From Mycolicibacterium insubricum (GTDB taxonomy: Bacteria > Actinomycetota > Actinomycetes > Mycobacteriales > Mycobacteriaceae), in NCBI RefSeq assembly GCF_010731615.1, contig NZ_AP022618.1, forward strand, positions 434,001 through 498,000: a DNA stretch of 64,000 nt, written 5' to 3'. Every line of letters starts with the position of its first letter. Position 1 is the first letter of the stretch. The notes below the pieces were generated by a model, which did not search any database, was not told the DNA's origin, and saw only the letters and a list, made by a program, of their open reading frames with translations. Shown here piece by piece: positions 8,500 to 9,900 of the stretch. The position numbers and the translations under genes are program-made.

Positions 8500-9900
8500 A
8501 TGTCTAGCCAGCTTCCTCTGACCCGCCGCGCGCTGACCGGGTTCGGCCGCACCGCCCCGTCGGTGGCCAACGTGTTGTCCACCCCCGACGTCGAGGTGAT
8601 CGCCGAGGCGGTCCGCCGGGTCGCCGACGCCGACTCCGCCAGCCCCGCACACCTGCGCCGCGGCATTCTCGGCCGCGGCCTGGGCCGGTCCTACGGTGAC
8701 CAGGCCTGCAACGGCGGCGGCATCGTCGTCGATATGACGGCGCTGAACCAGATCCACTCGATCGACGCGCAGAACGCCATCGCCGATGTGGACGCCGGCG
8801 TCAGCCTCGATCAGCTGATGAAGGCTGCGCTGCCGTTCGGGCTGTGGGTCCCGGTGCTGCCGGGCACCCGGCAGGTCACCGTGGGCGGCGCGATCGCCTC
8901 CGATATCCACGGCAAGAACCACCACAGCGCCGGCAGCTTCGGCAACCACGTGCTGTCGCTGGATTTGCTGATGGCCGACGCCGAGGTGCACACGCTCACC
9001 CCGGACGGCCCCGATGCCGAGTTGTTCTGGGCGACGGTGGCTGGCAACGGGCTGACCGGCATCGTGGTCCGCGCGCGCATCGCGATGACCCGGACCGAGA
9101 CGGCCTACTTCGTCGCCGACGGCATCGCCACCGCGGACCTCGACGAGACCATCGCGGTGCACCAGGACGGCAGCGAGGACCGCTACACCTACTCCAGCGC
9201 CTGGTTCGACCTGATCAGCGGCCCGCCGAAGCTGGGCCGCGCGGCCGTCAGCCGGGGCAACCTGGCCCGGCTCGACCAGCTGCCGCCCAAGCTGGCCAAG
9301 GACCCGCTGAAGTTCACCGCGCCGCAGCTGCCGGCGATCCCGAACCTGTTCCCGATCAACTTCATGAACAAGGCGTCGTTGGCGCTGATCGGCGAGACGT
9401 TCTACCGGATGAGCGGGAACTACTCGAACAAGGTCGTCAACCTGACCCAGTTCTACCACATGCTCGACATCACTACCGGGTGGCAATATGCCTACGGCCC
9501 AAAGGGTTTCGCACAACACCAGTTCCTGGTTCCGCCGGACGCCCTGGAGGAGTTCAAGTCGATCATCCGGTGGATGCAGACCCAGCGCCAGTACTCCGCG
9601 CTCAACGTGTTCAAGCTGTTCGGCCCGGGCAACCGCGCCCCGCTGAGCTTCCCGATGAAGGGCTGGAACGTCGCCCTGGACTTCCCGAACAAGCCGGGTG
9701 TCAACGAGTTCCTCAACGAACTCGACAACCGGGCAATGGAATTCGGCGGCCGGGTGTACACCGCCAAGGACTCCCGGGTCAGCGCCGAGCGGTTCCACCA
9801 GATGTATCCGCGCATCGGCGAGTGGATTGCGCTGCGGCGCAAGGCCGATCCGAACGGCGTGTTCGCCTCCGATATGGCGCGCCGGCTCGAACTGCTCTGA
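8500..9900 (+). CDS. dprE1: Decaprenylphosphoryl-beta-D-ribose 2'-oxidase DprE1, with alanine at the drug-target cysteine position
   Basis: 466-residue FAD enzyme that oxidises decaprenyl-phospho-ribose at C2', the first half of the epimerisation to the arabinose donor DPA; acts at the membrane face. The FAD-binding half is clear (RGLGRSYGDQACNGGG near residue 60; TVGGAIASDIHGKNHH near 130). The C-terminal half has the conserved KLFGPGNRAPLSFP. In M. tuberculosis the next segment reads WNICVDF and its Cys387 is trapped by benzothiazinones; here it is WNVALDF, with Ala392 (codon 9673-9675) in that place. This change is known in M. avium and gives natural tolerance. A TAACCT -10-like hexamer lies 10 bases before the ATG. 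Confidence 0.97.
   Translation: MSSQLPLTRRALTGFGRTAPSVANVLSTPDVEVIAEAVRRVADADSASPAHLRRGILGRGLGRSYGDQACNGGGIVVDMTALNQIHSIDAQNAIADVDAGVSLDQLMKAALPFGLWVPVLPGTRQVTVGGAIASDIHGKNHHSAGSFGNHVLSLDLLMADAEVHTLTPDGPDAELFWATVAGNGLTGIVVRARIAMTRTETAYFVADGIATADLDETIAVHQDGSEDRYTYSSAWFDLISGPPKLGRAAVSRGNLARLDQLPPKLAKDPLKFTAPQLPAIPNLFPINFMNKASLALIGETFYRMSGNYSNKVVNLTQFYHMLDITTGWQYAYGPKGFAQHQFLVPPDALEEFKSIIRWMQTQRQYSALNVFKLFGPGNRAPLSFPMKGWNVALDFPNKPGVNEFLNELDNRAMEFGGRVYTAKDSRVSAERFHQMYPRIGEWIALRRKADPNGVFASDMARRLELL

What the first reader, a model, noticed from the sequence alone, without database searches (positions are those of the whole stretch)
9661..9681. DprE1 has Ala392 where benzothiazinones need a cysteine
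The protein reads WNVALDF; M. tuberculosis DprE1 reads WNICVDF, and Cys387 is the residue that benzothiazinones (BTZ043, macozinone) bind covalently. M. avium (Ala) and M. aurum (Ser) are the known natural exceptions, and both tolerate these drugs. This organism should therefore be intrinsically tolerant, while non-covalent DprE1 inhibitors may still work.
Basis: partly seen in the sequence, partly recalled or inferred. Interest (0 to 1): 0.72.

Follow-up and report, generated by a model that had tools for sequence, protein, structure and literature searches.

The report
Alanine-type DprE1, spread by gene exchange
This mycobacterium carries a common natural form of the cell-wall enzyme DprE1 that lacks the cysteine to which benzothiazinone tuberculosis drugs attach, and sequence comparison suggests that the whole gene came from other mycobacteria rather than changing by one mutation.

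Summary
In detail: dprE1 lies at 8500-9900 (+) and codon 392 (GCC, 9673-9675) is Ala at the column of M. tuberculosis Cys387. No second DprE1 was found in the genome. The drug reading is mostly sound but not new: M. abscessus, M. chelonae, M. scrofulaceum and M. avium are benzothiazinone-insensitive in vitro. Ala is common: of 396 sampled genomes of the genus 391 carry the motif, 236 match it with Cys and 160 with Ala, 5 with both. Two side claims are weak: one M. aurum strain is BTZ043-sensitive, and in M. abscessus one non-covalent inhibitor is inactive and another about 1,000-fold weaker. Added here: how the Ala arrived. The window's DprE1 belongs to one well-supported Ala lineage scattered over the genus, against the adjacent aftA tree. 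Its relative M. brumae has a Cys-type DprE1, 68% identical, while dprE2, aftA and embC are 77-88%. Best explanation: replacement of dprE1 alone by homologous recombination. Insensitivity of this organism was not measured.

The parts
8500..9900 (+). [quoted passage not shown] also the extent of the proposed recombinant stretch
   Evidence: ORF; NF053785 756 bits, cut-off 500; PF01565 and PF04030; identity profiles
9673..9675 (+). codon GCC, Ala392, at the column of M. tuberculosis Cys387
9661..9681 (+).
8400..8550 (.). approximate upstream edge of the stretch with raised identity to Ala-type species (inferred; M. brumae aligns too poorly upstream to help)
   Evidence: sliding nucleotide identity to M. 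chelonae, CBMA226 and G394
9900..10050 (.). approximate downstream edge (inferred); from here M. brumae is as similar to the window as G394 is
8008..8439 (+). GtrA-type membrane protein, 143 aa
   Evidence: PF04138, 76.5 bits
9961..10740 (+). dprE2, partner 2-reductase, 259 aa
   Evidence: NF053786 405 bits, cut-off 250
10743..12659 (+). aftA, 638 aa (linked control tree)
   Evidence: PF12250 and PF12249; named homologues
12656..15886 (+). emb-type arabinosyltransferase (embC position), 1076 aa
   Evidence: PF04602, PF14896, PF17689; no NCBIfam model at E<=1e-50

Best explanation
The gene is a genuine, apparently sole dprE1 whose product does the oxidation step of decaprenylphosphoryl-arabinose synthesis with DprE2 (inferred from family and synteny). 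It belongs to an old 'Ala type' of DprE1 in which column 387 is Ala and about a dozen other residues differ from the Cys type (shown). Benzothiazinones need the Cys387 thiol for their semimercaptal adduct, so this enzyme should escape covalent inactivation (inferred from published Ala species, not measured). The Ala did not arise in this lineage by mutation of its own dprE1: the gene, and little else, was replaced by an Ala-type allele from another mycobacterium through homologous recombination (inferred from gene-tree conflict centred on dprE1). Benzothiazinones are synthetic and recent, so they did not select it; the selective cause is unknown.
For: Residue and family. dprE1 tree, 81 rows (window and 80 named loci): 25 of 29 Ala rows form one clade (SH-aLRT 100, quick search, no bootstrap) that mixes Mycobacteroides, M. 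llatzerense, M. rhodesiae, M. scrofulaceum, M. europaeum and M. vulneris. aftA tree, 64 rows: the 24 core Ala rows present need at least 6 changes on starred branches. AU tests on 48 rows: Ala core as one clade in aftA rejected, dlnL 548, p 2e-8; 17 slow-grower rows as one clade in dprE1 rejected, dlnL 217, p 2e-84. Local case: window, M. brumae (G175, AftA 100% to the named P0122) and G394 (4,156,821 bases) are one clade in aftA (99), but that trio is rejected in dprE1, dlnL 231, p 4e-10. Window against M. brumae: dprE1 68%, dprE2 88%, aftA 77%, embC 79%; against M. chelonae 87, 81, 63, 66%. M. bohemicum dprE1 is a mosaic of the two types. In the 396-genome sample no genome was seen to hold both types. 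Function: MICs in print.
Against: No susceptibility was measured for this organism, whose species is not established. The control genes aftA, dprE2 and embC are linked to dprE1; no unlinked core gene was analysed, and agreement with a genome phylogeny rests on passages of one paper. dprE2 is itself 78-85% identical to Ala-type fast growers but also 83-85% to two Cys-type rows (L054, L080), and its tree shows exchange of its own, so the lower edge is blurred. gtrA shows no clear pattern (60-80% to most species, M. brumae 66%). The nucleotide contrast against M. brumae is modest (67-82% over dprE1, 75-88% after it) and upstream that genome aligns too poorly to use (46-62%). The AU groups were named after trees had been seen, which makes the p-values too small. 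Ala in a Cys-type scaffold is active, if impaired (kcat/Km 8.5 against 26.8 in M. smegmatis), and 4 of 29 Ala rows lie outside the main Ala clade (L027, L030, L041, L082), so mutation in place does occur. PBTZ169 worked in mice against M. abscessus and M. chelonae despite MIC >32.
Confidence: 0.75

Rival explanations
1. Independent point changes: Cys became Ala in place in this lineage, perhaps because Cys387 is dispensable for catalysis.
For: Four of 29 Ala rows lie outside the main Ala clade; M. palauense (L082) has Ala in a gene that is Cys type at 30 of 37 informative positions and Ala type at 4. C394A of M. smegmatis DprE1 is active.
Against: The window DprE1 has the Ala-type residue at 29 of 37 informative positions and the Cys-type residue at 1 (the window was one of the 25 rows that define the type). 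Cys to Ala needs two base changes. The trio with its aftA relatives is rejected in dprE1.
Confidence: 0.07
2. Ancient duplication into Ala and Cys paralogues followed by differential loss, so that the two types are not allelic.
For: Two well-separated types exist in one genus; G162 has a second DprE1 homologue at 58% identity (L144). Second motif matches in G014, G126, G329 (Cys), G274 (Ala) and G083, G183, G303, G350 (neither) were not examined.
Against: Only 5 of 396 genomes match both the Ala and the Cys motif; G023 and G357 have one DprE1 match each at E<=1e-30, and in G231, G275 and G297 the Ala match reads WNPAVDF, WNRAFDF and WNAALDF, taken as unrelated by the motif alone. Both types occupy the slot next to dprE2 in most loci. 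The M. bohemicum mosaic needs recombination between the types.
Confidence: 0.06
3. A larger piece of the arabinan cluster was transferred, not dprE1 alone.
For: dprE2 is more similar between the window and Ala-type fast growers (78-85%) than aftA is (62-70%).
Against: aftA and embC of the window are nearest to M. brumae, G394 and M. palauense among the loci compared (several embC comparisons are partial), and dprE2 of M. brumae, a Cys-type species, is 88% identical to the window's.
Confidence: 0.07
4. The organism is not benzothiazinone-insensitive in practice, because Ala-type DprE1 is still inhibited non-covalently or host effects help.
For: PBTZ169 lowered M. abscessus (3.33 log10, lung) and M. 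chelonae (2.29 log10, lung) counts in mice despite MIC >32 ug/ml (PMC10106926).
Against: MIC above 32 or 100 ug/ml in the species whose Ala is shown here or in print.
Confidence: 0.1

Closest known systems
M. abscessus / M. chelonae DprE1
   Same: Ala at the Cys387 column; M. chelonae and M. franklinii lie in the same dprE1 clade, 87-88% identical; a protein named M. abscessus (P0008) is 87% identical and has the window's residue at 15 of 16 diagnostic positions.
   Different: Host lineage: window aftA is 63% identical to that of M. chelonae but 77% to that of M. brumae. No drug data for the window species.
M. llatzerense / M. phocaicum DprE1
   Same: Nearest named DprE1, 88-89%; M. llatzerense has the same WNVALDF.
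   Different: Host lineage differs (aftA of M. llatzerense 62%).
M. brumae DprE1
   Same: Same gene slot, and among the closest relatives by aftA, dprE2 and embC.
   Different: Cys type, WNVCVDF, 68% identical to the window.
M. tuberculosis / M. smegmatis DprE1 (4fdn, 4aut)
   Same: Orthologous enzyme; of 20 pocket-region columns examined (list recalled) 16 hold one residue throughout the 25 Ala-core rows, 28 Cys-type mycobacteria and 25 other rows.
   Different: Cys387 is Ala; also M. tuberculosis columns 325 (Arg to Tyr or Asn), 362 (Phe to Ala), 388 (Val to Leu or Met), 316, 322, 335 and 338.

Membership tests
[quoted passage not shown]
   NF053785, 756.2 bits against 500
[quoted passage not shown]
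   PF01565 and PF04030 above cut-off
[quoted passage not shown]
[quoted passage not shown]
   needs an enzyme assay
Ala-type (benzothiazinone-insensitive) DprE1 | Ala at the Cys387 column | tested here: met
   Ala392
Ala-type (benzothiazinone-insensitive) DprE1 | Member of the main Ala clade (a group defined here) | tested here: met
   inside the 25-row clade, support 100
Ala-type (benzothiazinone-insensitive) DprE1 | No second, Cys-type DprE1 in the genome | tested here: met
   one full-length match; the three others partial at 28-32% identity
Ala-type (benzothiazinone-insensitive) DprE1 | High benzothiazinone MIC of the organism | not testable with these tools
   needs culture; species not established

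The most novel reading that the evidence does not exclude
Mycobacteria keep two long-lived, co-adapted alleles of the essential gene dprE1 (Cys type and Ala type), which move between species as a single-gene cassette and sometimes recombine within the gene. Intrinsic insensitivity to a clinical drug class therefore follows an allele rather than a species, and the Ala type, with further pocket changes, may also be a poorer target for non-covalent inhibitors. An unknown natural inhibitor or substrate difference would maintain the two alleles.
Probability: 0.3. Interest if true: 0.65.

Novelty: new member of a known kind. Interest (0 to 1): 0.38.

Why it matters
Benzothiazinones are in clinical development for tuberculosis, and PBTZ169 has been proposed for other mycobacterial infections. 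If insensitivity travels as an exchangeable dprE1 allele, species name is a poor guide to susceptibility and column 387 of dprE1 is the thing to read. That the Ala-type scaffold differs at further pocket positions bears on why OPC-167832 is so much weaker in M. abscessus, which its authors left open. For this organism alone the matter is minor; it looks like a relative of the non-pathogenic M. brumae.

Tried and rejected
Sequencing error and misalignment were considered and rejected (two base changes needed; Ala shared by the nearest relatives; no gap in the block). A second, Cys-type DprE1 was looked for and not found. Base composition does not mark the gene as foreign: GC 67.5% against 68-72% for four neighbours, GC3 93% against 94-95%, as expected for exchange inside one genus. 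The species was sought through AftA: the nearest named protein is M. brumae at 77%; M. insubricum would fit the published neighbourhood, but that is a guess. NCBIfam gave no emb or AftA model at E<=1e-50; Pfam did. Paper searches for dprE1 exchange or for the residue across species listed 15 of 31 and 12 of 57 papers, none with such a title; the open-access library is partial, the paper on PBTZ169 across species (Shi 2018) is not held, and Makarov 2009 and Foo 2016 were not read. A review table lists C387A among substitutions linked to BTZ043 and PBTZ169 resistance (PMC8152995, passage). No structure was predicted, because solved orthologues exist. Part of the printed tree output was cut, so the end of the aftA tree and the head of the dprE2 answer were not seen.

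Full report
What is there. The ORF at 8500-9900 (+) encodes 466 aa. It matches the NCBIfam equivalog for decaprenylphosphoryl-beta-D-ribose oxidase with 756 bits against a cut-off of 500 and carries the FAD_binding_4 and ALO domains. It sits between a GtrA-type membrane protein (8008-8439) and dprE2 (9961-10740, NF053786, 405 bits), followed by aftA (10743-12659) and an emb-type arabinosyltransferase (12656-15886), the usual arabinan order of mycobacteria (order recalled). Residue 392 is Ala, codon GCC at 9673-9675. In the alignment to the M. tuberculosis chain it pairs with Cys387, with no gap in the block. The genome, one contig of 4,577,045 bases, gave one full-length DprE1 match and three partial ones at 28-32% identity.

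How unusual is the Ala? Of the 80 named loci returned by one scan (best 80 of 591 confirmed stretches) 28 have Ala and 52 Cys at the column. In 396 genomes of the same genus, drawn evenly from a larger group, 391 contain the motif GWN-x-x-[NTN codon]-DF in DNA; 160 match it with Ala and 236 with Cys. By my reading of the per-genome rows five match both (G023, G231, G275, G297, G357), and 160 + 236 - 5 = 391, so each motif-bearing genome has an Ala or a Cys match. Four genomes (G083, G183, G303, G350) have one further match that is neither, which was not examined, so Ser there is not excluded. Reversed-pattern controls matched in three genomes (G157, G259, G291) and in none that I saw. The matches were not checked one by one to be dprE1, and the printed place lists stop at 150. 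In the five double cases the Ala match looks unrelated (WNPAVDF, WNRAFDF, WNAALDF, and twice WNLAIDF); G023 and G357 have a single DprE1 match each at E<=1e-30, the other three were judged by motif alone. The Ala share is thus about 155 of 391, or 40%. Of the 120 listed nearest protein homologues (7944 proteins at E<=1e-60) 119 have Ala and one, P0032, has Thr.

What is in print. Benzothiazinones are reduced by DprE1 to a nitroso form that binds the Cys387 thiol (PMC3958311, passages). That paper reports MIC >100 ug/ml of BTZ043 and PBTZ169 for M. abscessus, M. bolletii, M. massiliense, M. avium and M. vaccae and ascribes it to Ala or Ser codons. PMC9765218 (passages; section 3 read whole) states that M. 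abscessus DprE1 has Ala; TBA-7371 was inactive (>100 uM) and OPC-167832 had MIC 5.2 uM, 1,000-fold weaker than in M. tuberculosis in the authors' words. PMC10106926 (passages) gives PBTZ169 >32 ug/ml for M. scrofulaceum, M. avium, M. intracellulare, M. abscessus and M. chelonae, but also reductions of M. abscessus and M. chelonae in mice. PMC8776228 (passages) says that all mycobacteria with Ala at this place are resistant and gives kcat/Km 8.5 for M. smegmatis C394A against 26.8 for wild type (its text says about 5-fold lower for the Ser and Ala variants). PMC3206020 (passages) states that M. aurum has Ser and is naturally resistant, whereas PMC8192043 (passages) measured 0.008 uM BTZ043 for M. 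aurum DSM 43999.

Where the Ala came from. A dprE1 tree of 81 proteins (window and 80 named loci; quick search, SH-aLRT support) puts 25 of the 29 Ala rows in one clade with support 100 and a stem of 0.19. That clade holds Mycobacteroides, M. llatzerense, M. rhodesiae, M. scrofulaceum, M. europaeum and M. vulneris, while M. gordonae, M. asiaticum, M. simiae and others are Cys. The aftA tree of 64 rows instead puts Mycobacteroides at the base of the mycobacteria and the slow growers (class recalled), Ala and Cys together, in one clade (99); the 24 core Ala rows present need at least 6 changes on starred branches. On 48 rows with both genes, holding the Ala core together in aftA costs 548 log units (p 2e-8) and holding 17 slow-grower rows together in dprE1 costs 217 (p 2e-84). 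These groups were chosen after looking at trees, so the p-values are too small, but the likelihood gaps are large.

The local case. AftA of the window is nearest to M. brumae among named proteins (77%). Handle G175 is that genome (AftA 100% to P0122; contig 3,988,920 bases, the published length). G394, 4,156,821 bases, has the published size of M. fallax (4.16 Mb). Window, G175 and G394 form one clade in aftA with support 99 (50 rows), but in dprE1 (61 rows) that trio is rejected (231 log units, p 4e-10). Protein identity of the window to M. brumae is 68% in dprE1 against 88% in dprE2, 77% in aftA and 79% in embC; to M. chelonae 87% in dprE1 against 81, 63 and 66%; to G394 90, 90, 75 and 80%. 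In 300-base blocks identity to M. brumae is 67-82% over dprE1 and 75-88% after it, a modest contrast, and upstream that genome aligns poorly (46-62%); identity to the Ala-type M. chelonae and strain CBMA226 is 81-90% over dprE1 and 61-82% beyond it. gtrA shows no clear pattern. dprE2 of the window is 78-85% identical to Ala-type fast growers but also 83-85% to two Cys-type rows, so it does not follow the residue. The simplest account is replacement of dprE1 alone, edges near 8400-8550 and 9900-10050.

Second line: the mosaic dprE1 of M. bohemicum (L028). From about 1100 to 600 bases before the motif it is 90-97% identical to four Ala-type slow growers and 79-90% to five Cys-type rows; from about 500 bases before the motif to the motif it is 84-90% identical to the Cys-type M. 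paraense and E3198 and 68-79% to the Ala type. So recombination inside the gene can also switch the residue. Mutation in place happens too: M. palauense (L082) has Ala in a gene that is Cys type at 30 of 37 informative positions and Ala type at 4, and three more Ala rows (L027, L030, L041) lie outside the main clade.

What else distinguishes the Ala type. Fourteen window positions separate the 25 Ala-core rows from the 28 Cys-type mycobacteria at the thresholds used: 15, 158, 189, 238, 289, 293, 321, 327, 340, 343, 346, 358, 367 and 392. In M. tuberculosis numbering (window minus 5 here) column 325 is Arg in 28 of 28 Cys-type mycobacteria and 25 of 25 other rows, but Asn or Tyr in 25 of 25 Ala-core rows; 362 is Ala in 24 of 25 against Phe in 26 of 28; 388 is Met or Leu in 25 of 25 against Val in 26 of 28. 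Columns 60, 132, 134, 230, 314, 367, 385 and 418 do not vary (that these line the inhibitor pocket is recalled). This may, but need not, explain the weak activity of non-covalent inhibitors in M. abscessus.

Verdict. The added finding, a patchily distributed Ala-type dprE1 that entered this lineage by gene replacement, I hold at about 0.75; it rests on linked control genes and needs a core-gene phylogeny. Whether this strain is insensitive in culture was not measured.

Noticed in passing
L068, L069, L075 (Nocardia cyriacigeorgica), dprE2: dprE2 of three N. cyriacigeorgica records is 79-80% identical to the window's and falls inside the mycobacterial dprE2 rows (fork 96), while their dprE1 groups with Nocardia: looks like exchange of dprE2 between genera.
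   Followed up: partly
L028 (M. bohemicum), dprE1 3001-4386: Mosaic dprE1: part of the first half Ala-lineage, second half with column 387 Cys-lineage.
   Followed up: yes
P0032: One close DprE1 homologue has Thr at the Cys387 column (WNATMDF).
   Followed up: no
L144 (G162:C17:216066-217424): A genome with two DprE1 homologues, one at 70% and a second at 58% identity on another contig.
   Followed up: no
G023, G250, G344, G357: A WNLAIDF motif in a second place that is not a DprE1 match at E<=1e-30; probably another FAD enzyme.
   Followed up: partly
G206: AftA matches at several places in one genome (7 pieces), suggesting extra AftA copies.
   Followed up: no
L027: A metagenome-assembled contig titled Rhodococcus sp. 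has Ala-DprE1 next to Cys-type Nocardia rows; the tree tool's origin label names a cyanobacterial family, so its label is odd.
   Followed up: no
L145 (M. brumae, 7883-8643): About 750 bases lie between gtrA and dprE1 in M. brumae against about 60 in the window.
   Followed up: no
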